Origin: Sipunculus nudus
Taxonomy: Eukaryota > Annelida > Sipuncula > Golfingiida > Sipunculidae
Reading direction: 5' to 3'
Length of the DNA: 64,000 bases
NCBI GenBank assembly: GCA_026874595.1
Contig: CM049308.1
Coordinates: 92,075,624 to 92,139,623, forward strand
A program made the translations under genes and the position numbers. The notes under the pieces were generated by a model. That model made no database searches. It was given only the letters and a program-made list of their open reading frames with translations, and had not been told where the DNA came from. Below, piece by piece: positions 447 to 50,790 of the stretch; the stretch's first letter is position 1; every line of letters starts with the position of its first letter.

Positions 447-1365
447 AGCTCAGCTGACTATAAGTCCTCGGAGCTGTAGTCGTGGTCCATTGTCTGTCAT
501 CCGTCCGTCTGTCTGTCCGCCCGCCTAGGTGTGAATAACACTGTTAACTTAGTATTAAAATTAGGAATATTGGTCAAACTTTGTTATGCCCCCGCCACAA
601 AGTGGCTGGGGCATATAGTTTTACCCATGTCCGTCCTTCCGTCATTCCGAAATCAAACAGTTGTACGGACTTTTCTTCGCAATGCCTGCAGATATTGGTC
701 TGATTTTTGGTGTGTGGGCAGATAATGACAAGTTACAGATCGAGTTCGCGTTTTGTCCTGGTTGACCTACTTTTACTGTTTTACGGGTCCTTAACTTAGA
801 AAATTTCATGAAAAATAGAAATTTTCATGACAAATACACATGTACAGACTTTTTTTCGCAATGCCTGCAGATATTGGCCTGATTTTTGGTGTGTGGGCAG
901 ATAGTGACCAGTTACAGTTTGAGTTCGCGTTTCGTCCCAGTTGACCTACTTTTGACCATACGACACCTCCTGAACTTAAAACATTTTACAAAATTTAACA
1001 AATGTTTCTAATTTGCCCCTGGCAGGGGCATTCGTGTCGTTCCGACACATCTAGTTGGATTATTTTTTTAACTCATATGGCCATATATTTAACTTTTGAA
1101 AACTTAATTACCTTCACACATTATTTGTTTATGAAATGTTACTTTTATATAACACTTACAGTAGGCCTATTTGTTCCCTTGGTGCATCACTAAATGGTTT
1201 AGCTCATGTCCATTATTCTATAATTTACAGTTTCATTTTAGCAGGGCCATTTTCTCATAGCCTTTCTAATGATAGTATACATGAAAAACCAAAAGAAACA
1301 AATATATTTCGCAGTTACTAATATTTTCCAAAATTCAGCTGAGCGATGTGACCCATGGGTCCCTT
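447..1365 (+). mobile_element. family B element, copy B1 (Helitron2-like, non-autonomous)
   Basis: The left end is a hairpin: AGCTCAGCTGACT, a short loop, then an imperfect complementary arm ending GGAGCT at 475. CCGTCC-type simple sequence follows at 490-530. The right end near 1336-1365 has TCAGCTGAGC, which complements the left hairpin arm, then the palindrome ACCCATGGGT and a CCTTG end. No coding capacity is seen. The same ends recur at 18069-19305, 23835-26229 and 26396-28502. Element A1 is nested inside. Assignment to a Helitron2/Helentron-type family is inferred from architecture only. Confidence 0.6.
587..1054 (+). mobile_element. family A element, copy A1, nested in B1
   Basis: It opens with a hairpin: TGCCCC and GCCAC pair with GTGGC and GGGGCA around an AAA loop (587-613). 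Two tandem units of about 178 bp follow, starting near 659 and 837 and sharing 'cgcaatgcctgcagatattg'. The right end has a GCCCCTG/GCAGGGGC palindrome that recalls the left hairpin, then a GTGTCG-TTC-CGACAC hairpin, then AT and CTAG (1051-1054) followed by T. This hairpin-plus-CTAG end is the classic Helitron 3' signature. It is non-coding, and related units recur from 22592. Confidence 0.6.
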
Positions 1366-1730
1366 GATTCAGTTAGTTTTGCTTGAATTATTTTTTGAGT
1401 ATGATATAAAACACATTTTACTCTAGTAACAAAATGGTAACCATAGCCTGAAGGAAACCCAGCAAAGATGTAAAGCAATGTCATTCTCATTTCTGTGTAT
1501 GATCAGCACATAGCTGATTTTCAGCAATCATCTTTGTAGCTGGTAAGGGAGCACCCAGGTAGTTGCTATATATATAATATTATTACCGGAGAGCTTGAAT
1601 CAGAATTAGAAGAGAACTGACCTCAGAGAGGCTTGTCACGCCCCATCTTTTCCATAAGTGCAGTGGTTGGCTGAATATATATATAAGAGTTGATAAATTG
1701 TTAGCAGTTTTCATATGCCTGCCTGTGATG
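1366..1730. other. non-coding spacer
   Basis: No gene, RNA or clear repeat is visible between the end of B1 and the hairpin of element G1. Confidence 0.5.
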
Positions 1731-2247
1731 GGACGTATTATGGGATACCCATAGTCAGTCCCTTGTCTGTCCGTTAAGTTTTTTTAGTGTTGCCACAGTA
1801 ATGTAGCAGGTGGATTTGATGTATTTTTACAAAACTCACCATAACTACTAACCAATAGATTATCTCACCCAATTTTAATTATAGGCAAAATCCATGCAAA
1901 TTTAATGAGGTCAGAGGTCACGTTACATCGTTGAGATAACTAATTACCAGGAATATGATGGCTTGTGATGAAACTCGACAGAAATATTAACCAATATTAT
2001 TTCTTGCCTAAGTACTATTCCTGGCAAAATCCATGCATATCCTATGAGGTCAAAGGTCACCAGACCTTGGTGGCATCATGATGATTTACCAAAAATGTTA
2101 TGAATATTCATTGGACACATTATAAATATTAACCAATACAGTTTCTCTGGTGAGTTAAATTTTTGGCAAAATTCATATCTATTAAAAATGGGGTCAGAGG
2201 TCACAAGACATAGGACAGGCATTTTATGCACCTTTGCTGTGCTCTTG
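1731..2247 (+). mobile_element. family G element, copy G1
   Basis: The left end folds as GGAC..ATTATGGG (1731-1744), loop ATA, CCCATAGT..GTCC (1748-1761), followed by 'tgtctgtccg'. The body is about three divergent units, each with 'aatccatgc..tatgaggtcaNaggtcac', giving perfect AGGTCA-N-AGGTCA direct repeats at 1908-1920 and 2047-2059. The right end is a decayed ATTTTATGCACC.. followed by GCTCTTG, matching the better preserved end of copy G2 at 29988-30018. Non-coding. Confidence 0.5.
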
Positions 2248-5200: not shown

Positions 5201-5999
5201 TGTATTACTACATTTATATTTGGGTAAAATTCTGATTGGGGAACGGGGGAGGACTTCCTAGGTCCTTGAGGTCACTCAGGAGTTGCAGACATCTAGCTGA
5301 TTATCTGATTAAAAAACAATGTCCAATGTTTAACAACTGACCTTCTGGACCAAATTCTGCATGTACCATGGAACACTGTCGGTCAGGAAAAAGTTGAATT
5401 GCATATACTATAGCTAGTTAATCATCCTGCTTGTACCGGTATTGTATTTTGTATCATATCATGAGCAATGTTGTGCAAAACCAAGTTGTGCAATAAGGTA
5501 CAACCAACCAATCAAAAGTTGTGTTACAAGTAATTAGGTTTAATTAAAAACTTAATATAATATCCTTGAAATCCACATTTGGTTTGTTTAAATCATTAAT
5601 CAAATTTTTTATTGACTGAACACAAGAATACATGATATTTAATGTAGGTAATCATTTTCTGCAAATTAAGAATATCTGTATTCAGGTGTGCTTCAAATAT
5701 TACTATATATGTTTTATATCAGTACCATTAAGCTGTGTTTAAAATCTATAAAGATATATGTATAGATACAGCAATGGTATATCATAATTATGGAAACAGC
5801 TTGTTCATATAGACTCAGAAATACAATTAGAACAAATGATACATTTAATACATCAGGAGAATATGTGCCACTGTTATAAACAGAACAGGATATCAAGGTG
5901 AATACCTGCGTGTAAAAGCATCAGTCAAAACAAGACACTATAAAAATATCAATATTTATATCCCCAGGTGTGTCTGTGTCATAAATTAGACATAATATT
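2248..5999. other. upstream non-coding sequence
   Basis: No conserved coding region is recognisable. Short open frames here lack any family match and are not supported as genes. A poly-G run of about 17 with one A interruption lies near 3868-3890. A promoter or 5' non-coding exon of FUT8 could lie here or outside the window; nothing in the sequence fixes it. Confidence 0.45.
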
Positions 6000-6748: not shown

Positions 6749-6886
6749 GATGAAAGGAGCAACATCGCGTGTGATTGCTGGCCTGTTTGTCTTCTGGCTG
6801 GTGGTATTGCTGTACATGAGTACGTCCCTGTACAGCAGCGAGAATTCTGTGGACCGCACGGAGAGACAGCTCAACAAGGCACTTGA
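6740..6886 (+). promoter_or_regulatory. overlapping upstream open reading frame
   Basis: An ATG at 6740 begins a 48-codon frame ending at TGA 6884-6886. It lies 10 bases upstream of, and out of frame with, the FUT8 ATG at 6750. It has G at -3 and G at +4, a favourable context. If the transcript contains it, ribosomes starting here would miss the FUT8 start, so it could lower translation. It is only relevant if the 5' exon extends at least to 6740, which the putative acceptor at 6735-6736 would allow. Confidence 0.35.
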
Positions 6887-9113: not shown

Positions 9114-12100
9114 TGATTGATGTAGATCAGAGTCTGTATACTGAACCTTCAAACCAGTTATAATGGAGGTGATTGATATAGATCAGAGTCTGTATACTGA
9201 ACCTTCAAACCAGTTATAATGGAGGTGATTGATATAGATCAGAGTCTGTATACTGAACCTTCAAACCAGTTATAATGGAGGTGATTGATATAGATCAGAG
9301 TCTGTATACTGAACCTTCAAACCAGTTATAATGGAGGTGATTGATATAGATCAGAGTCTGTATACTGAACCTTCAAACCAGTTATAATGGAGGTGATTGA
9401 TATAGATCAGAGTCTGTATACTGAACCTTCAAACCAGTTATAATGGAGGTGATTGATATAGATCAGAGTCTGTATACTGAACCCTCAAACCAGTTATAAT
9501 GGAGGTGATTGATATAGATCAGAGTCTGTGTACTGAACCTTCAAACCAGTTATAATGGAGGTGATTGATATAGATCAGAGTCTGTGTACTGAACCTTCAA
9601 ACCAGTTATAATGGAGGTGATTGATATAGATCAGAGTCTGTGTACTGAACCTTCAAACCAGTTATAATGGAGGTGATTGATATAGATCAGAGTCTGTGTA
9701 CTGAACCTTCAAACCAGTTATAATGGAGGTGATTGATATAGATCAGAGTCTGTATACTGAACCTTCAAACCAGTTATAATGGAGGTGATTGATATAGATC
9801 AGAGTCTGTATACTGAACCTTCAAACCAGTTATAATGGAGGTGATTGATATAGATCAGAGTCTGTATACTGAACCTTCAAACCAGTTATAATGGAGGTGA
9901 TTGATATAGATCAGAGTCTGTATACTGAACCCTCAAACCAGTTATAATGGAGGTGATTGATATAGATCAGAGTCTGTATACTGAACCTTCAAACCAGTTA
10001 TAATGGAGGTGATTGATATAGATCAGAGTCTGTATACTGAACCTTCAAACCAGTTATAATGGAGGTGATTGATATAGATCAGAGTCTGTATACTGAACCT
10101 TCAAACCAGTTATAATGGAGGTGATTGATATAGATCAGAGTCTGTGTACTGAACCCTCAAACCAGTTATAATGGAGGTGATTGATATAGATCAGAGTCTG
10201 TATACTGAACCTTCAAACCAGTTATAATGGAGGTGATTGATATAGATCAGAGTCTGTATACTGAACCTTCAAACCAGTTATAATGGAGGTGATTGATATA
10301 GATCAGAGTCTGTATACTGAACCCTCAAACCAGTTATAATGGAGGTGATTGATATAGATCAGAGTCTGTGTACTGAACCTTCAAACCAGTTATAATGGAG
10401 GTGATTGATATAGATCAGAGTCTGTGTACTGAACCTTCAAACCAGTTATAATGGAGGTGATTGATATAGATCAGAGTCTGTGTACTGAACCTTCAAACCA
10501 GTTATAATGGAGGTGATTGATATAGATCAGAGTCTGTGTACTGAACCTTCAAACCAGTTATAATGGAGGTGATTGATATAGATCAGAGTCTGTATACTGA
10601 ACCTTCAAACCAGTTATAATGGAGGTGATTGATATAGATCAGAGTCTGTATACTGAACCTTCAAACCAGTTATAATGGAGGTGATTGATATAGATCAGAG
10701 TCTGTATACTGAACCTTCAAACCAGTTATAATGGAGGTGATTGATATAGATCAGAGTCTGTATACTGAACCCTCAAACCAGTTATAATGGAGGTGATTGA
10801 TATAGATCAGAGTCTGTATACTGAACCTTCAAACCAGTTATAATGGAGGTGATTGATATAGATCAGAGTCTGTATACTGAACCTTCAAACCAGTTATAAT
10901 GGAGGTGATTGATATAGATCAGAGTCTGTATACTGAACCTTCAAACCAGTTATAATGGAGGTGATTGATATAGATCAGAGTCTGTGTACTGAACCCTCAA
11001 ACCAGTTATAATGGAGGTGATTGATATAGATCAGAGTCTGTATACTGAACCTTCAAACCAGTTATAATGGAGGTGATTGATATAGATCAGAGTCTGTATA
11101 CTGAACCTTCAAACCAGTTATAATGGAGGTGATTGATATAGATCAGAGTCTGTGTACTGAACCTTCAAACCAGTTATAATGGAGGTGATTGATATAGATC
11201 AGAGTCTGTGTACTGAACCTTCAAACCAGTTATAATGGAGGTGATTGATATAGATCAGAGTCTGTATACTGAACCTTCAAACCAGTTATAATGGAGGTGA
11301 TTGATATAGATCAGAGTCTGTATACTGAACCTTCAAACCAGTTATAATGGAGGTGATTGATATAGATCAGAGTCTGTATACTGAACCCTCAAACCAGTTA
11401 TAATGGAGGTGATTGATATAGATCAGAGTCTGTATACTGAACCTTCAAACCAGTTATAATGGAGGTGATTGATATAGATCAGAGTCTGTATACTGAACCT
11501 TCAAACCAGTTATAATGGAGGTGATTGATATAGATCAGAGTCTGTATACTGAACCTTCAAACCAGTTATAATGGAGGTGATTGATATAGATCAGAGTCTG
11601 TATACTGAACCTTCAAACCAGTTATAATGGAGGTGATTGATATAGATCAGAGTCTGTATACTGAACCTTCAAACCAGTTATAATGGAGGTGATTGATATA
11701 GATCAGAGTCTGTATACTGAACCTTCAAACCAGTTATAATGGAGGTGATTGATATAGATCAGAGTCTGGGTACTGAACCTTCAAACCAGTTATAATGGAG
11801 GTGATTGATATAGATCAGAGTCTGGGTACTGAACCTTCAAACCAGTTGTAATGGAGGTGATTGATATAGATCAGAGTCTGGGTACTGAACCTTCAAACCA
11901 GTTATAATGGAGGTGATTGATATAGATCAGAGTCTGGGTACTGAACCTTCAAACCAGTTATAATGGAGGTGATTGATATAGATCAGAGTCTGTATACTGA
12001 ACCTTCAAACCAGTTATAATGGAGGTGATTGATATAGATCAGAGTCTGTATACTGAACCTTCAAACCAGTTATAATGGAGGTGATTGATATAGATCAGAG

Positions 12101-12698
12101 TCTGTATACTGAACCTTCAAACCAGTTATAATGGAGGTGATTGATATAGATCAGAGTCTGTATACTGAACCTTCAAACCAGTTATAATGGAGGTGATTGA
12201 TATAGATCAGAGTCTGTATACTGAACCTTCAAACCAGTTATAATGCAGGTGATTGATATAGATCGGAGTCTGTATACTGAACCTTCAAACCAGTTATAAT
12301 GGAGGTGATTGATATAGATCAGAGTCTGTATACTGAACCTTCAAACCAGTTATAATGGAGGTGATTGATATAGATCAGAGTCTGGGTACTGAACCCTCAA
12401 ACCAGTTATAATGGAGGTGATTGATATAGATCAGAGTCTGGGTACTGAACCTTCAAACCAGTTATAATGGAGGTGATTGATATAGATCAGAGTCTGTATA
12501 CTGAACCTTCAAACCAGTTATAATGGAGGTGATTGATATAGATCAGAGTCTGTATACTGAACCTTCAAACCAGTTATAATGGAGGTGATTGATATAGATC
12601 AGAGTCTGTATACTGAACCTTCAAACCAGTTATAATGGAGGTGATTGATATAGATCAGAGTCTGTATACTGAACCTTCAAACCAGTTATAATGGAGGT
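9114..12698. repeat. 56-bp satellite array, 64 copies
   Basis: The anchor GATCAGAG recurs every 56 bases from 9125 to 12653 (63 intervals of exactly 56), so there is not one net indel in about 3.6 kb. Units differ by a few point changes only: GTATACT, GTGTACT or GGGTACT, and CCTTC or CCCTC. The pattern of variants repeats with a period of 15 units (840 bp): roughly 9317-10312 and 10157-11152 are identical at that offset. GGGTACT units occur only in the right third. 56 is not a multiple of 3 and there is no coding potential. There are no spacers, so it is not CRISPR. Confidence 0.97.
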
Positions 12699-17770: not shown

Positions 17771-18068
17771 TAGTCCCCCGCCGGAGGGGGGAGGACTACT
17801 ATAATGGTCCACCTCTGTCCGTCTGTTGTGCTGTCCTTCTGTCCATCTGTCCGTCCCAGCCCATTATTTTACCACATATCACTTAGACCCTTGCTGCTTT
17901 CTTCACCAAATTTGACAGACTTACTTAGCACATGAATGACTATAACATGCAGGTGTAGCCCCCTCTGTTTAACAATTTCTCCATTTAAATATTTCATCAA
18001 GAGATTTTCTTTAAAATCTAGTAAGAGAACCCATTGTTTGTGCCACCAGCTGATACCAAGAGATTATT
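17771..18068 (+). mobile_element. family F element left part, interrupted by B3
   Basis: Begins with a GC-rich hairpin: AGTCCCCCGCCGG pairs imperfectly with the stretch ending GAGGACT (17772-17797). Simple sequence of the type 'gtccatctgtccgtcc' follows, then about 200 bp of non-repetitive sequence. The layout matches the starts of families A, B and G. Its right end is not found; element B3 begins at 18069. Confidence 0.45.
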
Positions 18069-19305
18069 AGCTCAGCTGACTGTAAGTCATCTGAGCTATA
18101 GCGATCACCCTTTGTTCGTCCTCCGTCTGTCCGTCCGTCCGTCCGTCCATCTGTCCGTCCGTCCATCCGTCCGTTAACCTGGCACAAATCATAACCCCTG
18201 GACCTAGAAACTTGTAACTTGACATTCTGAGAGGTCCATGAAAAATCTCCTTGGAAACCAGAAATGAGGTCTCTGTTACCCATATCCTTCGAGCTATGGG
18301 GCCCCAAAGTACCCCCCAGAATAGTAAAAAATTTCATACAAAAACTTTTAATATCTCATTAACTTCATCACTGATGGTCATAATTTTTGGGATACATATT
18401 AATCATGAGATGTTCCATCAGTTCCTGCAGACTGGTGGCGCCACCTGTATTTTTCAATTTTTTACGAATTTTTTTCTCTATTTTTGAGACCTTTAAAAAT
18501 GTGAACATCTGTTAACAGGGCACAAATCGTTAAGACTGGACCTAGAATCTTCATTCTTTACACACTAAGAGACCTATGAAAAGTCTCAATGGAAACCTGA
18601 AATTAGGTCTCTGTTACCCATATCCTTTAAGCTGTATGGCTCCAAAATACCCCCCAGAATAATGAAAAATTTGATACAAAAACTGCAGTTTCTCAATAAC
18701 TACAACACTGATGGTCATGATTTTTCGCATACATATTGATCATGAGGTGTTCCATCAGTTTCTGCAGACTGGGTGCGCCACCTCTATTTTTTTTCAAATT
18801 TTTACGAATTTTTTTCTCTATTCTTGAGACCTTTAAAGATGTGGTTATCTGTCAACAGGGTACAAATAGTAACAACTGGACCTAAAAATCTTCATTCTTG
18901 TCATGCAAGGAGGCCCATGAAAAGTATCTGTGGAAACCTGAAATTAGGTCTCTGTTTCCCATATCCTTCAAGCTATAGGACTCCGAAGTATCCCACAGAA
19001 TAATGGAAAATTAGATACAAAAGCTGAAGTATCTGAACAACTAATGCAGAGATCACCATGGTTCTTTGCATGTATATTGACCATTAAGTGTCTTTATTAG
19101 TTTCTGCAGACTGGTGGAGCCACCTGTCTTTTTTTAAGTTTACACGTTTTTTCTCTATTTTTGAAATATATATGAATGCAGACACAATCTTGGCCTGTTG
19201 GTTAATCTGTTTGATGCTTCAGTTGAATGGGTATATACTACCATTCAGACGATAAAATTTCCTTTTGCGAATCTCTTCCCAGTCAGCTGAGCGTCATGAC
19301 CCATG
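18069..19305 (+). mobile_element. family B element, copy B3
   Basis: Left hairpin at 18069-18097: AGCTCAGCTGACT, loop GTA, AGTCATCTGAGCT, which pairs at 12 of 13 positions. CCGT/CCAT simple repeats run at 18122-18176. The core is three tandem units of about 337 bp starting near 18174, 18510 and 18848, each with 'aacagggcacaaat', 'tctctgttacccatatcctt' and a GGTGGCGCCACC-like palindrome after 'tcctgcagact' (18434, 18771 and 19113, the last two altered). The right end TCAGCTGAGCG..GACCCATG near 19283-19305 lacks the final bases of the family. Non-coding. Confidence 0.65.
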
Positions 19306-20972: not shown

Positions 20973-22591
20973 GTTCGAATGTAACTTCTGTCAGTGGGCA
21001 TCAGCTGAACTATTTGAAAAATGAGTTTGGGGATTCAGATTGCAATTTAAACCAGAAACAAGATGAGGAATGCATTCTTTTGTTATATTTTCAATATAAA
21101 ATGTAATTTAATCAGTTTTACAATGTCTGAGACCTGAGTGTATCTTAAAGAGTCCTGCTGTTCTCACTCTGATATGCTGATTATGCTCCAGGATTGTATG
21201 TCTTATTCATTCATTTCACATTGATATTTAAAAAAAAATGATATTGCCTGCCTTATGTGCTGGGTTTAAAAATAAATATTTCATTTATAAAAGAAAAATT
21301 ACAAAACAGCAGTAGACATTGGATATATTTCGCAGATACCAAAAAGCTACAAGGGTTAGGATGTTTATGAATACTTGATCAGGAAAAAGATACAGAGACA
21401 AGAAAAAAATGCAAAAAAGCGATCTTTGAAGATGATTGAGAATGCCAGCATCAGGACAGCACTAGGACATGGCATCCTAGTTTGTCAATACAATTAGTGA
21501 ACGAAGCAGGATGCTGTTACTTGGGCAAGAAACCAGGTATCTGTCATCATATATAATTACCCGTCTCTCCGTGGGTGGAGATATAGTCAGGAAATCTTTA
21601 ATAGTCCATCAACTGGACATTCAAAGCTTAGTGGGGGTTTTTATTTTAATACAGGAGTGTTTTTATTGTTATGCGACTAGGCAGGGATGTGGATTGAACA
21701 AGCTGCAGAATGACAGGAATGCAGGTTTTCCTTTGATATATTTGACTGGCTGTCAGACTGACACTTGGTCAAGGAAGTCTTTATTCAGGAACTTCCTCAC
21801 AGCGGTTGTATCAGGAAAAGTTTAGTTATTTTGTTACATTTTCAGTCCATATTTAGGATTTATGACTTCCTCTGTCCTCAAGTATCAGGAAACAAGTTGA
21901 AATTAAATGTCCTGTAAATTCTCAAAAAGTGTCTTGTATAAGGAACTTTTTAAACAATTTTTATTGATGTCATTTGTTACCTTGATGACCAGCAAATGTG
22001 TAAAGAAAAGATGTATAGTTTATGTATCACATTGTTTATTTGCAGACTCCCGTAAATACAGTGAGCCAGCTGAGCACATGATAGATATTGTAATCACCAT
22101 TGTAATTTTAATCAATGAAACTGATACTTGAATTTTACATCTCTTTAAATGTAGAAGAATGAGTTTTACCACTTCAGCATGTTATTTTGTAAGATCTAGT
22201 CTAACATCCTTTTCCATTCATTGTATTAAACATTATATTGATTTGTCTTACAGTTGTTGTGTATCAGCATCAGACATACCAGCCATGGAATTCAGCTTCT
22301 GTTTCAATCCTTTGGGGAAATCTATAAATTTCTTATAAAATCCTTATTAGGCATTGATTAATTAGCCTGCACACTATGTCTCTTTATTTGTCATTTGTCA
22401 CTGGAAACTAATTCACAAACACCTTATTCCTCATTAATACCTAACACAAAGTGCACTGTGTATTCCCCAAGCAAGCAGTTAAATTACACTTAAACCCCAA
22501 ATGGAGTTCGTGAAAATTGTACACCAAAATTGGTTTTGGTACAGTGGTGTTACATACACCATATTTTTTGATCAGCCAATTATTTTAATAA
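20973..22591. other. FUT8 intron 1, no feature seen
   Basis: No gene, RNA or named repeat is supported. Open frames at 21511-21825 and 21907-22131 have no recognisable domain. Confidence 0.5.
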
Positions 22592-23400
22592 TACCCCTGC
22601 CACAAAGTGGCTGGGGCATATAGTTTTACCCATGGTTGTGATTCTGTCCTTCCGTCATTCTGAAATCAAACAGTTGTACAGACTTTTTTTCGCAATGCCT
22701 AAAGATATTGGCTTGATTTTTGGTGTGTTGGCAGATAATGACCAGTTACAGGTTGAGTTCGAGTTTCATTGGGGTTGACCTACTTTTGACTGTTTCATGG
22801 CTCCTAAACTTTGAAAATTTCATGAAAATTGAAATTTCCTGACAAATACACATGAACAGACTCTTTTTTGCAATGCCTGCAGATATAGGCCTGTTTTTTT
22901 ATGGGTGGGCAGATAATGACCAGTTACAGATTGAGTTCATGTTTCGTCCCAGTTTACCTAATTTTTGACTGTTTTATAGCCCCTGAACATAGAAAATTTA
23001 ATGAAAAATAGAAATTTTCATGACAAATACACATGAACAGACTCTTTTTCGCAGTTCCTGCAGATATAGGCCTGTTTTTTGGTGGATGGGCAGATAATGA
23101 CTAGTTACAGATCGAGTTTGTGTTTCATCCCAGTTGACCTAATTTTTACCGTTTTACTGCTCCTGAACTTAGAAAATTTCATGAAAAATATTATTTTCAT
23201 GAAAAATGCACATGTACAGACTTTTTTTTTCGCAGTGCCTGCAGATACTGGCCTGATTTTTGGTGTCATGTCAGATAATGACCAGTTACAGATTGAGTTC
23301 ATGTTTCATCTCGGTTGACCTACTTTTGACTGTTTGACAGTTTTGGACAGTTTGACGGCTCCTGAACATAAAAAAATCAATGAAAAGAAAAAAAATTTTC
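22592..23400 (+). mobile_element. family A repeat, copy A2 (four tandem units)
   Basis: Starts with the A-type hairpin (CCCCTGCCAC AAA GTGGCTGGGG, written with its loop), then 'ttacccatggttgtgattct'. Four units of about 180 bp follow, the 'cagactttttt' marker falling near 22678, 22858, 23039 and 23217. No A-type right end with CTAG is seen at 23400; the sequence passes directly into family C. Similar units reappear at 28751-28915, so the whole may be one composite later split by insertions. Confidence 0.6.
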
Positions 23401-23834
23401 AGGCCATTAACTTTTACCTTGTGAGCGGGATATCTCTAAAAGGATTCCCCATTGGAATTTTATTTCATCAGTGAAGATGTATATCAATAAAATCTCATGC
23501 AAGGTTGAAGATGGTGACCTTGGCCCATTTTTCTACATTTTAAAGTTGATTATAGAAAAACACTCAGAAGCTTATATCTCAGGAACAATTGTGTGGATTT
23601 CTATAAAACTTACTATGGTTGTTGGGACTGATGGTCTGTACCTGCTGCACGAGTTTGGTGGTGCCACCTACAATTTTTTACTTTTTTATGAATTTTTATC
23701 GGATATTTCACCTTTGGCCTTGTGAGCAGGATATTTCTTAAAGGATTTGCCATAGGAATTTTTATTTCATGGTGAAGATGTATATCAACACAATCTTGGT
23801 CAAGTTCGAAGATGGGTGACCTGGACCTATTTTT
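23401..23834 (+). repeat. family C repeat, first segment
   Basis: Units of about 298 bp, each with 'cttgtgagcaggatatctc', 'gattatagaaaaacactcag' and 'tggtggtgccacctac'. The segment stops at 'ggacctattttt', where element B4 is inserted, and resumes at 26230. Non-coding. Confidence 0.65.
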
Positions 23835-24571
23835 AGCTCAGCTGACTTTAAGTCATCTGAGCTATAGTCATGGTCCTTTGTCCGTTGTCCGTCCGTTAAC
23901 AGGGCATGTTTTGAAACCATTGGACCTACGAATCCAAAATTCTGCATACCATTAGATGTCCCCAAAATCTCCTACCATACCGAAATTTGGGTCATTAGGA
24001 CTTCGTTCCTTCGAGATATTGAGGAAAAACCTCTGTTTTCTTTAAAAAAGCCATTGTTACACTCTAAGGCTGCTTCATATCAAAACCACTGATCTGTTTT
24101 TGATGAAATTTATATATTTTTTATATTCTTCCATACATTTTCTATGCACATACCAAAATTTATGTCAGTATTGGGTATTATTTTGAAGTTATAGATCCAA
24201 ATATAATGCAATTTTAAAAAAATCAGGAAATATATTTGCTCACTTAACATGACAATTGCTGAAGCTGGAGACTTTTTTTCAGGAATATAACTTTATTTAA
24301 TCAAGATTCAATTGTTTACCCAAAATAAGATCTCAATTTTGCAAATTTTTTAAGTTATTAGCATAAATAAAAAATCAATACCTTAAATTTTGTCCAACTT
24401 TGGCAATGGCACGTTTTTTCCCTGTAAGCAGTGTTGATTTAATTTTCACAGCATATATACATAAGGTTTTAAACTTTTAAAATCTGAAATTTCAAAGTAA
24501 TTGCTTGAAAAGAGAAGCTTTTATTCAAGTTTTCATACACCATGTAAAGTGTTGTTTACCTCTGCCCTGCA

Positions 24572-24592
24572 CTCCCCCCCCCCCCCCCCCCC
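24572..24592. repeat. poly-C tract
   Basis: About 20 consecutive C residues inside element B4. Such tracts also occur near 37796 (C), 37896 (G), 42757 (G) and 51557 (C) in this window. Confidence 0.9.
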
Positions 24593-25139
24593 AAGATGGT
24601 GCATTAACTAGATGAATGTTATTAATTTCCTATTTTATTTTATTCTTGGCTGTGCTACATTTTAGATTTTGTATTGTACCACCAGGGTTACAATGATTAA
24701 AGTGCACATTTATTTGTGTCCACAAAGTGGTGTATTGCTGTGAAAGTGTGGATGTTCATCAGATAAGTAATGCTTTACTTCAGAAGAGTAAAACTTCACC
24801 AGGTGTGAAATTGACTATTAATTCCAGTAATAAATTATAGCTGAGATTGTAATTAGCATAATGATATTGTTTGTCCCTCATTCAACCAACAGTGTGTATA
24901 CTTTATTTGAAAAGATGTTTTTATTTTATCAAATTTACTGAATCTTTTATTTTATTTCGGTGAATAAAATTAAGCATGTACTGAAAACTCCAATGTGCAA
25001 AACTTTTTAATAGTGATTCAAGGAATATTCTTGTAGATGCCATGTTGTGGCATTATTTTCTTTTAAATTCAGTTTAAACATTTATGATTTAAAAAAAATA
25101 AAATATATGTGTATGCATAATATGACCCAATATGAGCTA

Positions 25140-25278
25140 CACTCTGGATATATGATGATTGCAACTTTTGCAACAATTCTAATATTTTAACTTATAGTTT
25201 CAGTTTTTTACTCTGTATATATAATGATTGCAACTTTTGCAACAATTCTAATATTTTACCTTTTATTTTCAGGTTTTT
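25140..25278. repeat. tandem duplication, about 70-bp unit, two copies
   Basis: The segment with 'gattgcaacttttgcaacaa' and 'ttctaatattttaac' occurs twice in succession with only a few changes. It lies inside element B4. Confidence 0.8.
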
Positions 25279-26229
25279 TTATTAAAAATTTATAAAACCT
25301 GTAAATAAAAAAATGATTCAGATAAAAACTTCTTAATTGAAAAAGTGGATATGCTTTAAAAAATAGGATTATATATAAACTTAAATGCATTATTCCCTTG
25401 AAAGTGAAATAAAGGTATTAGTCCATTCTGTCCACTTGCCTGTCAATCTGTAAATTTTTCATATGCATCACAGTATCTCAAAACATTTACTATTTTCTTC
25501 ATGACATCTTGTTAGAGTATTAGTTTGCAATCATATATTTAGAACTTTACTGTAACCAAGTAGGAGGGCCCCTTTCCTCTTAGCTTCTCATATGCTTATA
25601 TAAATGAAAACATTACAATAGAATATTTTTCATATTTTGCATTTGCAAAAATGTCAAACTTAAGCTCGGCCAAACATGGTGCGAATACTTTGCAAATGTA
25701 TTTGAATACGAATATGAATATTTACTCCATTATAAAATTTCTTGAATAAGAATGGGAATTCAGGTAAAAATGAAAGTATTTGAATACCAGTGCAAATACG
25801 TTCAAAATGTATTCATGAATGCATTCATGAATATATTCTATAATATAATTTTAATAATCATTTCAGTTATATTTTATTTTAAAAAATCATATGATTCTCT
25901 TATTATTTTTAATCAAAATTATATTTGGCACAATATTTGTTATTAAATTTTAATAAAAAGTTAAACTCTTATCTTATATTTGCTGCTTATCAGTTATATG
26001 GCCAAGTCAAAATCTGTATGACCATAGCACTCCATTTGTTAATAAAATAAATGCATTCAATCTCTTCCCTGTCTCCACAGAAACTATCAAAGTCATACAT
26101 AAGCTAAACACCAACAACTCATAATACAACTTATATTTATTACCGTACAAAACCAGCATGTGCCTCATTTCAAAATCATATTTTTTTTTCATATATAACA
26201 GCTGAGTGCCGTGACCCATGGGTCCCTTG

Positions 26230-26395
26230 TTCTTTGTTTAAGTGCTGATTATAGAAAAACACTTAGAAGCTTATATCTCAGGAACCATTGTGTGGTTTTT
26301 CACAAAACTTACTATGGCTATTGGGACTGATTGTCTTTACGTGCTGCACAATTTTAGGGGCGCTACCTTCAATTTCTTATTTTTTAGCTCAGCTG
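26230..26395 (+). repeat. family C repeat, second segment
   Basis: Continues the C unit interrupted at 23834: 'gctgattatagaaaaacact', 'cttatatctcaggaaccatt', 'gggactgattgtcttta', then 'aatttcttatttttt', where element B5 is inserted. Confidence 0.65.
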
Positions 26396-28502
26396 ACTTT
26401 CAGTCATGCTGGGCTATAGCGATGGGTCTTTGTCCGTCGTCCTTCCGTCTGTCCGTCCGGCCGGGGTGTGTTATGGGGTGTGTTTGCACCCCCCAGAAAT
26501 AACTCTTTGAGACAAAATTTTCATTCCAAACCTTCCATCTTTCACATACAGCTCACCTACCAACAGGGGAAGAACCATAATTTTTTTGAGGTCAAAAGGT
26601 CAAAGGTCAAGGTCACAGGAGCCTCTTCTTTGAAAAGCCTGTGGATGCATTTTAAGCCAACCCTTTCATCCCAATTCTTTGATCTTTCACATATAGCTCA
26701 CCTACTAAGTTGGAGAAGAATCCTATGGAGTCTTTTTCAGGCAAACTTTTCAATCTGTACCTTCCATCTGTCATATATGGCTTACCTACCAATAAGGGAA
26801 GAAACCTATTGATGTTGAGGTCAAAAAGTCAAAGGTCAAGGTCACAATATTTAATTGTTCTAAATGCTTGTGAGCATATTTCAAGTGTAACTGTTCAACC
26901 CAAACCTTCAGTCTTTCACATATGCCACATCTATGCATCACTCAGTTTGACTCAAACTTCATATTTATGGGTCTTTTTGCTTGAATAAATAACTTATTGA
27001 TTTTGGGGTCAGCTGGTCAGCAGGTTAAAGGTTGCAGGTCAAAGTTATTCACCCATTGGTTGCCAAGTAATTACACCAGATTTAAGTGGTTAGTAGTTAC
27101 CCATCATTTAGAAAGAATCCAGTTGATATATGGGCAAAAGGCCAAGGTCCTAGGTCAGGGATGTTCACAATTACTTATTTTATAGACCATCTCTATTTTT
27201 CTTGTATATATAACCATCCCACTCCAGCTGGTACATCTCCCTGTGTGGCTGTAATTGTGAGTGACACTGGTGACATATGACTCCCTTTTGTATCAGCCTA
27301 TTAAGTGATAAGGCTCAGTGATAAGTACCTCGTTACTTCATAACAAAAACACTGTTGTCAGAATGCTTCAGCCAGGCATTAAGACTATGAGAGTATAGTA
27401 TTAAGGTTTAGCTACTGATTTATAAGATGATGGGAACATTTTGCAGTTTATTTTATGGAATCCTAGCAATTAACTTAGTTTTCTAGATATCTGAATATTT
27501 TAATATATATCACCACATATAAAAGCAAGTGTTTGTTCTCATAATATGTGGATGTGTACCTTGATTTAGGATGGCTTTTTGTTTTATTTCAAGACTCTTA
27601 GTCATGCTTTCTGCATTTCTTTTCTTTCAGGTTTGGCAGTTTACCTACCCTGCTGACCCCATTGAAAAGCAGAGTGATAATAAAATATATTGGACTTACA
27701 CTTTTTACAATTGCATATCTATAAATCTGATATGAGGGCCTGGACATGCCTTCTGAATTATTTTGGGCATCCATTACTGGATAATTTGCCCCAAGTTTGG
27801 TCTCTTATTGGAGAATGTGGGATATCAAATGTCATACTTGTCAGAAATCCATTATGTCTGCCAGTTAGCCACCTTAGAAATTCTTTCTTCAGTGCAGTTT
27901 CAGTAATTTTTCTTTAATGTTTGGTCCGATTTAGAGAATGTTTGTTGTCTGATTTCAGACTTGTCAGAAGTCCAATATGGACACCAGGCAACCATCTTTT
28001 AATTCCTTTTGATCATTTTATCTCAAGAACAGTTAAAGTGAATGCAGTTGGATGTATATTTATGTAATCTTGTAAAGGATTGTGTCAAATATTTCTGAAT
28101 AAATATTACCATCATTTATAAAAGTGCAGTACAGTTGGCTTGTATTGAATAAAAATTCCGACAGAAGCACCTGTTTCTCAATAATTCTTGCATGTATTTC
28201 CTTGATTTTTGCTATATATTTTGATCTTATATTTGCCCTTTGTGGTGTTCCTTTTGAGACTGACAGGTTTCAAGCAAGCTGTTGGAATAGTTCCTGATAG
28301 CTTAACAATCATGCATTTTCCTCAGACCATCAATTCACTGTGTTTTAACCAGACATAGGTGATATATATTTCTGTTGTCATAGAAAATTTTCAACAAATT
28401 GGCAAATTGGTTCTTCAAAATTTGACTGGAAGTTGTGAATCTCAGTCCATGATGTCACAGGTCATGCTTGGCAGCTGAGCGTCATGACCCATGGGTCACT
28501 TG
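26396..28502 (+). mobile_element. family B element, copy B5 (2.1 kb), inserted in repeat C
   Basis: Left end AGCTCAGCTGACT at 26396 with a decayed second arm, then 'tccttccgtctgtccgtccg'. The right end is CAGCTGAGCGTCATGACCC..GGGTCACTTG at 28471-28502, given here with the middle AT omitted. The interior (26490-27260) holds tandem units with 'ggtcaaaggtcaaggtcac', including a perfect AGGTCA-A-AGGTCA at 26597-26609 directly followed by another AGGTCA. Similar units form repeat H at 31.8 kb. Non-coding. Confidence 0.7.
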
Positions 28503-28915: not shown

Positions 28916-29410
28916 CATTTTTGGTTGACCTCTGACCTTTCCTCTCTGCCTAGCGTCCATTTGTGCGTCTGTTTCCACACATAAACCCACATATCTCGGG
29001 AACTGTTTGACCGATCAGGCTAAAAACTGTACAAATGTGAAGCTTAATAACATACACTAAAATAGGTGGGCCACCTGCAACAGTTTTTGCACAGCGTTCA
29101 TCTGTTCATCTGCCTTGGGATAAAATCACTCATATATCAGAAGTGGTTTGACTTATCCACCTGAAATTTTGCAGGTTTAGGTTTATACATCCTGAACAGC
29201 TTCCTCGATTTTATGACAGGTGGCGCCACCTACATTCACATTTACTCTGCAGACATCCAAGCTCATATCTTGGGAACTGTTTGACCGATTGGGCCATCCA
29301 TGCTAATATGAACACACCCTACTCTATTCCCCTTGCCACTTAATCCATGCCTCACTTCACCCGTCTCACTCTGATTTCTGCGGATACACATAGTGACTTG
29401 TCTGAAACTT
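28916..29410 (+). mobile_element. family D element, copy D1, short and truncated
   Basis: Begins with 'ttgacctctgacctttcctc' and 'tttgtgcgtctgtttccaca', as in the 5' region of D3 read on its own strand. It then has about one and a half core units, with GGTGGCGCCACC at 29220, and a subterminal GCGGATACACATAGTGACTTG near 29380-29400. The hairpin and CTAG end seen in D2 and D3 are missing. The core here is much shorter than in D2 and D3. Confidence 0.55.
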
Positions 29411-34079: not shown

Positions 34080-35763
34080 CAATACTGGTGGCGCCACCTG
34101 CAGCCATATTTGCACAGCATCCGTCTGTTTGTCTGCCATGGGATAAAATTACTCATAACCGGCAGTGGTTTAACATACCTGCCTAAAATTTTGCAGGTTT
34201 ATACATCCTGGACAGCTCTGTTAATTTTATGACAGATGGTGCCACCCACATTCTAGGTTATGCTGCAGACATCCAAGCTAATATCTGAGGAACCGTTTGA
34301 CTGATTGGGCCAAAATTTTGCATGTGTATAGGTCTCACATAGCTCTTTATCATACGCAAAACTGGTGGCGCCACCTGCAGCCAATTTTGCACAGCATCCA
34401 TCTGTTTGTCTGCCATGGGATAAATTACTCATATCTAGGCAGTGGTTTGACATACCTGCCTAAAATTTTGCAGGTTTATACATCCTGGACAGCTTTCTTG
34501 ATTTTATGACAGGTGGCGCCACACACATTCACTTTTATGCTGCAGACATCCAAGCTTATATATCGGGAACCATTTGACTGATTGGGACAAAATTTTGCAT
34601 GTGTATAGATCTTACATAGCACTTCATCATAGGCAAAACTGGTGGCGCCATCTGCGACCACTTATGCACAGCGTCCATCTGTTCATCTGCCATGGGATAA
34701 AATCACTCATCTCAGCAGTGGTTTGACTTATCCACCTGAAATTTTGCAGGTTTATACATCCTGGACAGCTTTCTCGATTTTATGACAGGTGGCACCACCT
34801 ACATTCACATTTACGCTGCAGACATCCAACCTAATATTTAAGGAACCAATCGACCGATTGGGCCAAAATTTTGCATGTGTATAGATCTCACATAGCTCTT
34901 TATCATACACCTGCAGCCATATTTGCACAGCATCCGTCTGTTTGTCTGCCATGGGATAAAATTACTCATAACCGGCAGTGGTTTAACATGCCTGCCTAAA
35001 ATTTTGCAGGTTTATACATCCTGGACAGCTCTGTTAATTTTATGACAGATGGTGCCACCTACATTCTAGTTTATGCTGCAGACATCCAAGCTAATATCTG
35101 AGGAACCATTTGACTGATTTGGCCAAAATTGTGCATGTGTATAGGTCTCACATAGCTCTTTATCATACACAAAACTGGTGGCGCCACCTGCAGCCAATTT
35201 TGCACAGCATCCGTCTGTTTGTCTGCCATGGGATAAAATTACTCATATCTAGGCAGTGGTTTGACATACCTGCCTAAAATTTTGCAGGTTTATACATCCT
35301 GGACAGCTTTGTTGATTTTATGACAGGTGGCGCCACCTACATTCTAGTTTACGCTGCAGACATCCAAGCTCATATCTCAGGAACCATTTGACCGATTGGG
35401 CCAAAATTTTGCATGTGTATAGATCTTGCATAGCTCTTAATCATATACAAAACTGGTAGCGCCACCTGCAACTATTTTTGCACAGCATCCATCTGTTTGT
35501 CTGCCACGGGCTAAAATCACTCATATACATGTAGTGGTTTGACTTATCTGCCTTAAATTTTGCATATGGATACAACTTGGACAGCTTTCTGGATTTTATG
35601 ATGGTAGGTGGGGCAACCTACATGCACATTTTGGCTGCAGACATCCATGCTAATATGCAACACTTCACTCTGTTTCCCCTTGGCACTCAATCCATGCGTC
35701 ACTTCACCCGTTCCACTCTGAATTTGGATACACATAGTCGCTTGTCGACTACCCATATTCTAG
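34080..35763 (+). mobile_element. family D element, copy D2, expanded core array
   Basis: About six tandem core units of 267-285 bp start near 34085, 34370, 34639, 34909, 35176 and 35454. Each has the GGTGGCGCCACC-type palindrome, 'tgccatgggataaaat', 'aaattttgcaggtttataca' and 'catgtgtatagatct'. The 3' end has GGATACACATAGTCGCTTG, a decayed GAATAC..GTATTC hairpin and CTAG (35760-35763) followed by T. The 5' end is missing. It lies in the orientation opposite to D3. Confidence 0.7.
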
Positions 35764-44605: not shown

Positions 44606-44771
44606 CCCCAGGTCATAATCATGAAGTGATTAGAAGAAAAATTGATAATGGGGTCGTGGAGTGGTGGTACTTTGTCAGGTCAGAGTTGAATAAAATCATG
44701 GAGATTGCAGAGAAACCAGCTTTGAAGACCAAAATCAGCCAGGTCCTTGAAGATGCTGGTGTACAGGAAAG
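44606..44771 (+). CDS. FUT8: FUT8 coding exon 3: stem helices
   Basis: Encodes residues 117-171 and two bases of codon 172. It includes HEVIRRKIDNGVVEWWYFVR (residues 121-140), which matches the conserved 'EI.RR.I.NG..E.W.F...EL' stem segment of FUT8, and ends in GVQE before ER. The donor is AAAG|GTAGGT, phase 2. A second acceptor six bases downstream (CCCAG|GTCAT, exon start 44612) keeps the frame and would drop Ala-Pro. The 36-bp satellite begins almost directly after the donor. Confidence 0.92.
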
Positions 44772-44779
44772 GTAGGTCA

Positions 44780-46445
44780 AAAACTTACAGTCACACAGAC
44801 ATATAGAAACCTAAAACATTATAGTCCTACACAGACATACAGAAACCTAAAACATCATAGTCCTACACAGACATACAGAAACCTAAAACATTATAGTCCT
44901 ACACAGACACACAGAAACCTAAAACATTATAGTCCTACACAGACATATAGAAACCTAAAACATTATAGTCCTACACAGACATATAGAAACCTAAAACATT
45001 ATAGTCCTACACAGACATACAGAAACCTCAAACATTATAGTCCTACACAGACATACAGAAACCTGAAACATTATAGTCCTACACAGACATACAGAAACCT
45101 AAAACATTATAGTCCTACACAGACATACAGAAACCTCAAACATTATAGTCCTACACAAACATACAGAAACCTAAAACATTATAGTCCTACACAGACATAC
45201 AGAAACCTGAAACATTATAGTCCTACACAGACATACAGAAACCTAAAACATTATAGTCCTACACAGACATACAGAAACCTGAAACATTATAGTCCTACAC
45301 AGACATACAGAAACTTGAAACATTATAGTCCTACACAGACATACAGAAACCTCAAACATTATAGTCCTACACAGACATACAGAAACCTAAAACATTATAG
45401 TCCTACACAGACATACAGAAACCTGAAACATTATAGTCCTACACAGACATACAGAAACCTAAAACATTATAGTCCTACACAGACATACAGAAACCTGAAA
45501 CATTATAGTCCTACACAGACATACAGAAACCTGAAACATTATAGTCCTACACAGACATACAGAAACCTGAAACATTATAGTCCTACACAGACATACAGAA
45601 ACCTGAAACATTATAGTCCTACACAGACATACAGAAACCTGAAACATTATAGTCCTACACAGACATACAGAAACCTGAAACATTATAGTCCTACACAGAC
45701 ATACAGAAACCTAAAACATTATAGTCCTACACAGACATACAGAAACCTGAATCATTATAGTCCTACACAGACATACAGAAACCTAAAACATTATAGTCCT
45801 ACACAGACATACAGAAACCTGAAACATTATAGTCCTACACAGACATACAGAAACCTGAAACATTATAGTCCTACACAGACATACAGAAACCTGAAACATT
45901 ATAGTCCTACACAGACATACAGAAACCTAAAACATCATAGTCCTACACAGACATACAGAAACCTGAAACATTATAGTCCTACACAGACATACAGAAACCT
46001 AAAACATTATAGTCCTACACAGACATACAGAAACCTAAAACATTATAGTCCTACACAGACATACAGAAACCTAAAACATTATAGTCCTACACAGACATAC
46101 AGAAACCTAAAACATTATAGTCCTACACAGACATACAGAAACCTGAAACATTATAGTCCTACACAGACATACAGAAACCTGAAACATTATAGTCCTACAC
46201 AGACATACAGAAACCTGAAACATTATAGTCCTACACAGACATACAGAAACCTGAAACATTATAGTCCTACACAGACATACAGAAACCTAAAACATTATAG
46301 TCCTACACAGACATACAGAAACCTGAAACATTATAGTCCTACACAGACATACAGAAACCTAAAACATTATAGTCCTACACAGACATACAGAAACCTAAAA
46401 CATTATAGTCCTACACAGACATACAGAAACCTGAAACATTATAGA
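44780..46445. repeat. 36-bp satellite array, about 46 copies
   Basis: The unit is 'aaacattatagtcctacaca' + 'gacatacagaaacct(a/g)'. The ACATT marker recurs every 36 bases from 44816 to 46436 (45 intervals, no net indel). Because 36 is divisible by 3, one forward frame stays open from 44751 to the stop ending at 46520 (about 590 codons, HYSPTQTYRNLK repeated), but it contains no ATG within the array. The reverse strand shows short MFQVSVCLCRTI repeats. The array starts within ten bases of the exon 3 donor; the first copies are the most diverged. Confidence 0.97.
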
Positions 46446-48800: not shown

Positions 48801-48804
48801 GATA

Positions 48805-49222
48805 AGTATTCAACTGTCAGCAGTGGAATCAGATGAGTTTTTAACTGTTAACAATTGAATCAGATAAGTTTTCAACTGTCAGCAGTGGAATCAGATGAGT
48901 TTTTAACTGTCAACAATTGAATCAGATAAGTTTTAAACTGTCAGCAGTGGAATCAGATGAGTTTTTAATTGTCAGGATTGGAATCAGATAACTTTTCAAC
49001 TGTCAGCAATGGAATCAGATGAGTTTTCAACTGTCAGCAATGGAATCATATGAGTTTTCAACTGTCAGTGATGGAATCAAATGAGTTTTCAATTGACAAG
49101 ATTGGAATCAGATGAGTTTTCAACTGTCACCAGTGGAATCAGATGAGTTTACAGTTGTCAGCAATGGAATCAGATTAATTTTAACTGTCAGCAATGGAAT
49201 CAGATGAGTTTTCAACTGACAA
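48805..49222. repeat. minisatellite, about 31-bp unit, about 13 copies
   Basis: The unit resembles 'gttttcaactgtcagcagtg' + 'gaatcagatga'. Copies vary by substitution (cagcagtgg, caacaattg, cagcaatgg) and small indels; early copies alternate between two subtypes. Confidence 0.85.
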
Positions 49223-49330
49223 GGAACAAGAAAAACTGAAACTCAGCTATCTTAACTATTGGTTATGCCTTTTGAATTATGTTAGTTTCATGTATATAAA
49301 TGCTGAGATAGAGAATTTTTTAAAATGAAA

Positions 49331-50790
49331 CTAGAATACGGGTATTCGACAAGCGACTACGTGTATCCGCCTAAATCAGAGTGGAACGGGTGAAGTGAGG
49401 CATGGATTAAGTGGCAAGGGGAAATAGAGTGAAGTGTTGCATATTAGCATGGATGTCTGCAGCCAAATTGTGTATGAAGGTTGCCTCCCCTACCACAAAA
49501 TCCAGAAAGCCGTCCCAGTTGTATACATATGCAAAATTAAGGCAGATAAGTCAAACCACTACATGTATATAATTGAATTTTAGCCCGTGGCAGACAATCA
49601 GATGGACGCTGAGCAAAAATGGTTGCAGGTGACGGCACCAGTTTTGCGTATGATAAAGAGCTATGTGAGAACTATACACATGCAAAACTTTGGCCCAATC
49701 GGTCAAACGGTTCCCAAGATATGAGCTTGGATGTCTGCTGAATAAACTAGAATGCAGGTGGCTCCACCTGTCATAAAATCAAGAGAGCTGTCGGGGATGT
49801 ATAAACCTGCAAAATTTAGCCAGATATGTCAAACCACTGCCGAGATATGAGTGATTTTATCCCATGGCAGACAACAGACAGGAGCTGTGCAAAAATGGCT
49901 GTAGGTGGCGCCACCAGTTTTGCGTATGTTATAAAGCTCTCCAAGGGCTACATTTGTGCAAAAAATTTTCCTGATCGGTCAAACGGTTCCCGAGATATGA
50001 GCTTGGATGTATGCAGCGTAAACGTGAATGTAGGTGGCGCCACCTGTCATAAAATCAGAAAAGCTATTCAGGATGTATACGCATGCCGAATTTCAGGTGA
50101 ATTAGTCAAGTCACTGCAGAGATATGAGTGATTTTAACCCAAGGCAGACAAACAGATGGGCACTGTGCAAACATGGTTGCAGGTGGCGCCACCATTTTTT
50201 GTGTATGTTATAAAGCTCTCCAAGGGCTACATTTGTGCCAAAAAATTTTCCTGATCGGTCAAACGGTTCCCGAGATATGAGCTTGGATGTCTGCAGCGTA
50301 AACGTGAATGTAGGTGGCGCCACCTGTCATAAAATCATAAAAGCTATCCAGGATGTATACGCATGCCAAATTTGAGGTGAATTAGTCAAGTCACTGCAGA
50401 GATATGAGTGATTTTAACCCAAGGCAGACGGACAGATGGACACTGTGCAAACATGGTTGCAGGTGGCGCCACCATTTTTTGTGTATGTTATAAAGCTCTC
50501 CAAGGGCTACATTTGTGAAAAAAATTTTCCTAACCCGTCAAACGGTTCCCGAGATATGTGGGTTTATGTGTGGAAACAGACGCACAAACGGACACAGAGC
50601 GCAGAGGAAAGGTCAGAGGTCAAAACAAAATCGGGGCGCAGCAGTTCACATGTGACCCGAACATAATCCCGGGTTTCGTAAAATTCCGCCCAGCGGTTAC
50701 GGAGGAGTTCTCCGGAAACCTACGCCGCAGCGGCGGCGGCGGCGTGCAGCTGAAAACATAGTATCCGCAAAACTCTGTTTTGCGGATACA
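49331..50790 (-). mobile_element. family D element, copy D3, with both ends
   Basis: Read on the minus strand. The 5' end is a perfect 13-bp hairpin, GTATCCGCAAAAC and its complement around three bases (50761-50789). A GC-rich stretch (GCC repeats near 50730) and 'gacctctgacctttcc' follow. Then come core units of about 276-280 bp (palindromes near 49627, 49905, 50033, 50183, 50312 and 50462). A subterminal GCGGATAC (49363-49370) copies the 5' hairpin arm. The 3' end is a GAATAC-CC-GTATTC hairpin (49334-49347) and CTAG (49331-49334), with T next in the host. Hairpin plus CTAG and the asymmetric inverted repeat fit a Helitron2/pearl-type non-autonomous element. No coding capacity. Confidence 0.75.

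What the first reader, a model, noticed from the sequence alone, without database searches (positions are those of the whole stretch)
447..50790. Four repeat families with unrelated sequence share one terminal design
Seen: families B, A, D and G each have (1) a 5' hairpin with arms of about 11-14 bp and a 3-base loop in the best copies; (2) in B, A and G, CCGTCC/CTGTCC simple sequence just inside it, and in D a GC-rich stretch with looser 'tccgtttgtgcgtctg'; (3) a core of tandem units of about 180-340 bp; (4) a copy or complement of one hairpin arm near the 3' end; (5) a small 3' palindrome or hairpin; (6) an end in CTAG (A, D) or CTTG (B, G). Examples: D 5' GTATCCGCAAAAC, 3' GCGGATAC then GAATAC-CC-GTATTC then CTAG; B 5' AGCTCAGCTGACT, 3' TCAGCTGAGC then GACCCATGGGTC then CCTTG. 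F and perhaps H share the 5' half. Known: asymmetric terminal inverted repeats plus a 3' hairpin mark Helitron2/Helentron elements and their non-autonomous relatives, including 'pearl'-type elements of bivalves. Inference: several lineages are mobilised by one rolling-circle machinery that reads structure more than sequence.
Basis: partly seen in the sequence, partly recalled or inferred. Interest (0 to 1): 0.75.

Follow-up and report, generated by a model that had tools for sequence, protein, structure and literature searches.

The report
Rolling-circle transposon offspring and their parents
These repeats are short, protein-less offspring of Helentrons, a known kind of rolling-circle jumping gene; protein-coding parents of two of the families were found in the same genome, and each of these families has its own parent instead of sharing one machine.

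Summary
The repeats are elements in thousands of copies with sharp ends, a 5' hairpin, a 3' copy of its arm, a 3' hairpin, and insertion into oligo-T without duplication at three readable empty sites. That is the published Helitron2/Helentron (HINE) design. New here: protein-coding parents in the same genome. Family B/G ends exactly like a 14.9-15.9 kb Helentron (2342-aa Rep/PIF1/endonuclease frame). Family A ends exactly like a 12.0-12.4 kb Helentron of another Rep lineage (35% identity). Both parents carry the family's tandem array behind their 5' end. No parent for D was found. 'One machinery' is not supported: eight of eight intact B-type ends found lie behind clade II Reps, two of two A-type ends behind lineage III. 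'Structure over sequence' is partly supported: the B 3' palindrome occurs as GA..TC (13,304) or GG..CC (993), seldom half-changed (192). The common 5' hairpins of A, B and D each carry one stem defect at the eighth or ninth base, while the two terminal repeats pair without mismatch over 9-11 bp. Corrections: B and G share ends, so there are three terminal families; the D palindrome quoted is a rare variant (31 against 4,527 copies).

The parts
447..1366 (+). B-type HINE; 5' hairpin 447-475 (diverged), GTCY stretch about 481-530, 3' repeat 1335-1344, palindrome 1350-1361, end CCTTG; interrupted by the A element at 586-1054
   Evidence: sequence
586..1054 (+). A-type HINE nested in the B element; 5' hairpin 586-614, 181-bp core units, 3' hairpin GTGTCG-TTC-CGACAC, end CTAG, TT on both sides
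   Evidence: sequence, core; ends equal those of lineage III Helentrons
17772..17797 (+). F: 5' hairpin followed by CTGTCC repeats, no 3' end found; not studied further
18069..19305 (+). B-type HINE with 341-bp core array holding GGTGGCGCCACC; 3' palindrome truncated (GACCCATG)
   Evidence: the array is homologous to the array of clade II parents
22591..23410 (+). A-like 5' end (diverged hairpin) and 181-bp core array; further array downstream, to about 28905, is split by two B-type insertions (extent inferred)
23835..26229 (+). B-type HINE inserted in that array; paralogous empty site in the array, oligo-T, no target duplication
26386..28502 (+). G: HINE with B-type ends and another interior; paralogous empty site in the array, oligo-T, no target duplication
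28917..29402 (+). truncated D copy
34080..35763 (+). D copy without its 5' end; 277-bp array; 3' hairpin close to the common form (TAGTCG-CTTGT-CGACTA), end CTAG
49331..50789 (-). complete D HINE; 5' hairpin 50761-50789 (atypical, perfect), 280-bp array, 3' repeat GGCGGATAC, rare 3' variant, end CTAG

Best explanation
The repeats are non-autonomous Helentrons (HINEs). Each terminal family is moved in trans by the Helentron lineage whose ends it shares: B and G by clade II, A by lineage III, D by a lineage that is lost or was not reached. The HINEs look like internal-deletion derivatives that kept the parent's 5' hairpin, GTCY stretch, tandem array and 3' end (shared ends and arrays are shown; the deletion step and the movement in trans are inferred). 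Likely cycle, inferred from the anatomy and from the model in PMC3627910: Rep nicks at the 5' end next to oligo-T, a strand is peeled off and copied towards the 3' end, the 3' repeat pairs with the 5' repeat and opens the 5' hairpin, the 3' hairpin marks the stop, and the single strand is joined into a new oligo-T site without duplication. The shared design is the family trait of Helentrons; the end sequence is matched to the Rep clade.
For: Lineage III: two loci (L022 on C3, a second copy on C5, Rep 94% identical over 177 aa) start TTTTT|ATGCCCCCGCCAC.. and end ..CGACACATCTAG|TTT like family A; inside the ends 177/183 and 198/200 aligned bases agree, outside 71/118 and 113/183. Clade II: L015 (C17) and L021 (C1) start TTTTT|AGCTCAGCTGACT.. 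and end ..GACCCATGGGTCACTTG|TT like family B/G; inside 178/184 and 197/200, outside 106/169 and 104/172. The outside values, 60-63%, equal the background of unrelated window pairs (mean 63%). Both parents hold the family's array inside the 5' end: 180 bp x 6.5 in L022, 337-bp units in L015. Proteins: Helitron_like_N, PIF1 and endonuclease matches; Rep motif GSPH. Ends: 12 of 13 A 3' ends are CTAG|TT, 7 of 7 B 3' ends (C/A)CTTG|TT, 4 of 4 D 3' ends of the rare variant CTAG|TT and 2 of 2 of the common one, 8 of 8 D 5' ends TT|GTATCC. Three paralogous empty sites, oligo-T, no duplication. B-type ends: 8 of 29 Rep 3' sides, with Reps 70-100% identical to L015 in the best-aligned stretch; A-type: 2 of 29.
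Against: D, one of the three families, has no parent in the 29 Rep 3' sides examined (of 143 listed Rep matches, chosen, not drawn at random). 18 of the 29 gave no recognised end, one (L095) only a degraded B-like one, and lineage I Reps were not traced to their ends. No transposition was observed. L021 and L022 have broken frames; L015 has an open 2342-aa frame but its activity is unknown. In L022 the endonuclease match is partial (E 3.2e-4, under Pfam's cut-off). For each lineage both ends were read in two loci only.
Confidence: 0.9

Rival explanations
1. One Rep/helicase machinery moves all families by reading structure alone.
For: Same layout in A, B and D; CTAG and CTTG exchange within the B type; compensating pairs in the B palindrome.
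Against: A and B ends sit on two Rep lineages 35% identical, 2 of 2 and 8 of 8 without crossing; the end sequence is kept in thousands of copies of each family.
Confidence: 0.08
2. MITEs or fold-back elements moved by a DDE transposase.
For: Short, abundant, hairpin ends, T-rich sites.
Against: Asymmetric repeats, three empty sites without duplication, parents with Rep/PIF1 and no transposase match in the frames scanned.
Confidence: 0.02
3. The A and B ends near the Rep genes are chance nested HINEs, not the ends of the Helentrons.
For: HINEs are dense, and a D HINE is indeed nested in L015 and L021.
Against: Two loci of each lineage share the sequence inside the two ends and drop to background at both; inside the L022 and L015 copies there is one family-type 3' end only.
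Confidence: 0.04

Closest known systems
HINE elements, in particular Cg_HINE of Crassostrea gigas (PMC7492417; abstract, whole results and first of two parts of the discussion read)
   Same: 5' subTIR with complementary inverted repeat, GTCY-type microsatellite, satellite-like tandem core, 3' subTIR, 3' palindrome, TT target, no duplication; several families with unrelated sequences in one genome
   Different: That paper could not connect its HINEs with any autonomous Helentron; here parents of two families are found and carry the arrays
Helentron (PMC4067079; abstract and two of three parts of the results read)
   Same: Rep motif 2 with GSPH, PIF1 helicase, endonuclease domain at the C-terminus, subTIRs, 3' stem-loop, T-rich target; HINEs as derivatives of Helentrons
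   Different: Parents here hold satellite-like arrays behind the 5' end; ends are CTAG or CTTG (that paper, in the parts read, gives CTAG for a Phytophthora relative)
Helitron2 (PMC3627910; section on features and matched passages read)
   Same: 5' repeat 0-2 bp from the end forming a hairpin, 3' repeat about 20-30 bp before the end next to a second hairpin, compensating changes, proposed competition of the two pairings
   Different: Here the common 5' hairpin of three families has a single stem defect at the same height, which the passages read do not mention
Non-canonical Helitrons of Fusarium (PMC5148889; matched passages read)
   Same: Asymmetric repeats, 5' hairpin, similar termini within a group of related elements
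   Different: Short hairpins without mismatch in the sequences quoted there, no endonuclease, no satellite arrays mentioned in the passages read

Membership tests
Helitron2 | 5' repeat 0-2 bp from the 5' end, folding into a hairpin | tested here: met
   A, B, D
Helitron2 | 3' repeat about 20-30 bp before the 3' end, just upstream of a second hairpin | tested here: met
   A 23, B 22, D 32 bases between repeat and end, counted on the sequence (D slightly outside)
Helentron | Rep with GSPHxH motif 2 and PIF1 helicase | tested here: met
   L015 and L022
Helentron | C-terminal endonuclease | tested here: met
   L015: Exo_endo_phos E 2.4e-5 (24.6 bits, cut-off 24.5), Exo_endo_phos_2 E 3e-5 (below its cut-off); L022: partial, E 3.2e-4, below the cut-off
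Helentron | Insertion in T-rich sequence without target duplication | tested here: met
   three paralogous empty sites (two B-type, one D, none for A) and flanks
HINE | non-coding element sharing both ends with an autonomous Helentron of the same genome | tested here: met
   A and B/G
HINE (family D) | non-coding element sharing both ends with an autonomous Helentron of the same genome | tested here: inconclusive
   no D end in the right place among 29 Rep 3' sides
canonical Helitron (Helitron1) | 5' TC, 3' CTRR, no 5' hairpin, insertion between A and T | tested here: not met
   5' hairpin present, T-T sites, 5' ends ATGC/AGCT/GTAT; CTAG would fit CTRR, CTTG does not
MITE / DDE transposon | symmetric terminal inverted repeats and target duplication | tested here: not met

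The most novel reading that the evidence does not exclude
The 5' hairpin of these Helentrons is deliberately imperfect. In A and B the stem is 7 bp, one mismatch at base 8, 5 bp, loop of 3; in the common D form it is 8 bp, one bulged C, 5 bp, loop of 3. The same 5' strand pairs with the 3' repeat without mismatch over 9-11 bp (A 11, B 10, D 9), with a better computed energy than the hairpin (A -18.1 against -12.1, B -13.9 against -9.6, D -15.9 or -12.3 against -10.0 kcal/mol; the duplex carries no loop cost, and against the bare arms, -14.5, -12.0 and -12.4, the D variant at -12.3 is no better). In the first 100 listed copies the base opposite C8 is T 97, A 2, C 1, G 0 in B, and C 95, T 5, G 0 in A, and it differs between the parents L015 (A) and L021 (T). 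This would make the hairpin a built-in weak lock that the 3' repeat opens at the end of rolling-circle copying.
Probability: 0.35. Interest if true: 0.65.

Novelty: new member of a known kind. Interest (0 to 1): 0.5.

Why it matters
HINEs that carry satellite-like arrays are a proposed source of dispersed satellite DNA in bivalves, and their autonomous partners were unresolved in the oyster study (PMC7492417). Here two partners are found, with the arrays already inside them, which makes it testable whether the arrays spread with the Helentron instead of being captured later by the short copies. The link of end sequence and Rep clade, and the shared hairpin defect, give concrete predictions for how Rep recognises and ends a transposon.

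Tried and rejected
One shared machinery: rejected as best reading because ends follow Rep clades. D parent: I looked for D ends in 29 Rep 3' sides and in the 5' sides fetched; the D ends found near Reps were nested or neighbouring D HINEs (one in L015 466-1322 and the same one in L021; reverse-strand copies upstream of L016, beside the Rep at C3:57.29 Mb and beside the one at C6:50.12 Mb), not element ends in the right place and orientation. Lineage I (Rep VIRIEFQARGSPHAH): the alignable blocks of L014 and L020 add up to about 20 kb over some 24 kb, with breaks and 3 kb in the middle unread, and no end was recognised, so no HINE partner could be named. I first took the endonuclease for absent because the scan was cut at a fetch border; the uncut C-terminus shows it. 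I first took the Reps behind L093, L094, L096 and L101 for a separate lineage; once read (L113-L116) they belong to clade II; in L113 and L116 the frame is broken and secondary stretches are only 64% and 43% identical. The Rep of L095 was not read. Other species were not searched for these ends.

Print: searches of the open PMC library listed no paper whose title or opening abstract names an autonomous partner of a bivalve HINE; of most listed papers I saw only that, and subscription journals are not held.
Full report
What was checked. The described repeats are present. Sequence reading and self-comparison give: B type at 447-1366, 18069-19305 and 23835-26229, and G at 26386-28502 with the same ends; A type at 586-1054, nested in the first B, and an A-like 5' end at 22591; D at 49331-50789 (minus strand), with damaged copies at 34080-35763 and 28917-29402; F, a 5' end only, at 17772. 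The hairpin scan gives four places in the window (7 rows), all of them 5' ends of these elements, against a mean of 0.55 rows in 20 shuffled controls.

Boundaries. Genome-wide the motifs occur in thousands with zero or near-zero controls. Sampled flanks show sharp ends: 12 of 13 A 3' ends are followed by TT (the exception by TC), 7 of 7 B 3' ends by TT, D 3' ends by TT in 4 of 4 copies of the rare variant and 2 of 2 of the common one (in a third D copy, L051, no 3' end was found in 2.1 kb), and 8 of 8 D 5' ends are preceded by TT. D 5' and 3' ends pair up: 42 of 55 listed 3' ends, median 1,475 bp; four further neighbours are in the wrong order or strand. Three empty sites could be read: the two B-type insertions at 23835 and 26386 sit in a tandem array whose other units lack them, and the D copy in L015 sits in a Helentron whose relative L016 lacks it. 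All three are oligo-T sites without duplication; the number of T differs slightly between filled and empty sites. No empty site was read for A.

Parents. PF14214 gives 143 matches in the genome; 12 were cut out with the search, and further ones were chosen by score, frame length and lineage. Of 29 Rep 3' sides fetched (11, 9, 9), eight end with the B-type 3' end (L015, L017, L018, L021, L093, L094, L096, L101), one has a degraded one (L095), two end with the A-type end (L022 and its second copy), 18 show no recognised end in the stretch fetched, none ends with D. For L015/L021 and for L022/second copy both ends were read: identity is 97-99% just inside and 60-63% just outside, the latter equal to unrelated pairs from the window. 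L015 is 14,883 bp, L022 12,003 bp; from coordinates L021 is about 15.9 kb and the second lineage III copy about 12.4 kb. L015 encodes one open 2342-aa frame with DUF6570, Rep, PIF1 and a C-terminal endonuclease match; L022 has the same order in broken frames with a partial endonuclease match. The arrays of the HINEs lie in the parents between GTCY-like stretch and coding region: 180-bp units in L022, about 337-bp units with GGTGGCGCCACC in L015, homologous to the 181- and 341-bp units of the window.

Ends follow the Rep clade. Reps behind the eight B-type ends (L015, L017, L018, L021, L113-L116) are 70-100% identical to L015 in the best-aligned stretch; L022 is 35% identical to L015 and about 47% to lineage I. 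The second A-type parent has a Rep 94% identical to L022 over 177 aa. So the layout is shared, the sequence is clade-specific, and a single machinery is not needed.

Structure. The B 3' palindrome, behind the intact 3' repeat, appears genome-wide as GACCCATGGGTC 13,304 times, GGCCCATGGGCC 993 times, and in the two half-changed forms 89 and 103 times. Copies are related, so these are not independent events, but both paired states occur on protein-coding relatives (L015, L017, L021 against L093, L096, L101), and L018, whose Rep is 88% identical to that of L015, shows GGCC..GGCC; L094 has one unpaired change. CTTG and CTAG exchange within the B type.

The hairpin defect. Common A and B 5' hairpins fold as 7 bp, mismatch, 5 bp, loop of 3; common D as 8 bp, bulged C, 5 bp, loop of 3. 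The pairing of 5' and 3' repeats has no mismatch over 11 (A), 10 (B) and 9 (D) bp and scores better by 2-6 kcal/mol than the hairpin; part of that gap is the loop cost, and for the D variant with TTTAGGCGGATAC the duplex only equals the bare arms. The 3' repeat GGCGGGGGCAT is intact in 10 of 13 A copies. The window D copy, with a perfect stem, is an exception. This fits the published idea that the 3' repeat opens the 5' hairpin at the end of replication (PMC3627910), but the defect may also be simple inheritance from one founder per family; three families are a small sample, and the first 100 listed copies are all from one contig.

Known or new. The element type is known: Helitron2 (PMC3627910), Helentron and HINE (PMC4067079), Cg_HINE with 11 elements of the same substructure, some unrelated in sequence (PMC7492417). 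New in this data set are the parents of two array-bearing families, the arrays inside them, and the clade-specific ends. In the library searches made I saw no paper naming such partners for bivalve HINEs.

A composite. Both clade II parents read through to their 5' end (L015, L021) carry two 5' hairpins, 724 bp apart in L015 and 1,062 bp in L021, before one 3' end; the outer hairpin is the boundary in both. A copy that starts at an outer 5' end evidently can pass an inner 5' end and stop at the 3' end (inference). The review PMC12628747 (passages read) describes arrays with several 5' ends and one 3' end for plant Helitrons.

Noticed in passing
L053 (read on the minus strand, 940 and 1664); L077 with L054: Clade II parents have two 5' hairpins but one 3' end, and the composite has moved as a unit.
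   Followed up: partly
18434, 29219, 34087, 34364, 35177, 35326, 49904, 50033, 50182, 50313, 50462: The palindrome GGTGGCGCCACC lies in the otherwise unrelated core arrays of B and D, and (with up to one mismatch) four times in the clade II parent L015, but not in the lineage III parent L022.
   Followed up: partly
9114-12698 and 44793-46444: Two very regular tandem arrays, 56 bp x 64 (98% matches) and 36 bp x 46 (97%), without visible link to the HINEs.
   Followed up: no
L013, L014, L020 and their flanks: Lineage I Reps (L013 with an OTU protease match) lie in repeats whose homology extends discontinuously over some 24 kb without a recognised end.
   Followed up: partly
L015:3-3728 (minus strand): The N-terminal part of the L015 protein matches PF04843 (Herpes_teg_N), E 4.7e-12, and DUF6570; a captured protease-like domain is possible (the protease role is recalled).
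   Followed up: no
whole genome: B-type 5' hairpins (25,390) outnumber B-type 3' ends with the main palindrome (13,304) about two to one; the two patterns differ in strictness, so this may not be biological.
   Followed up: no
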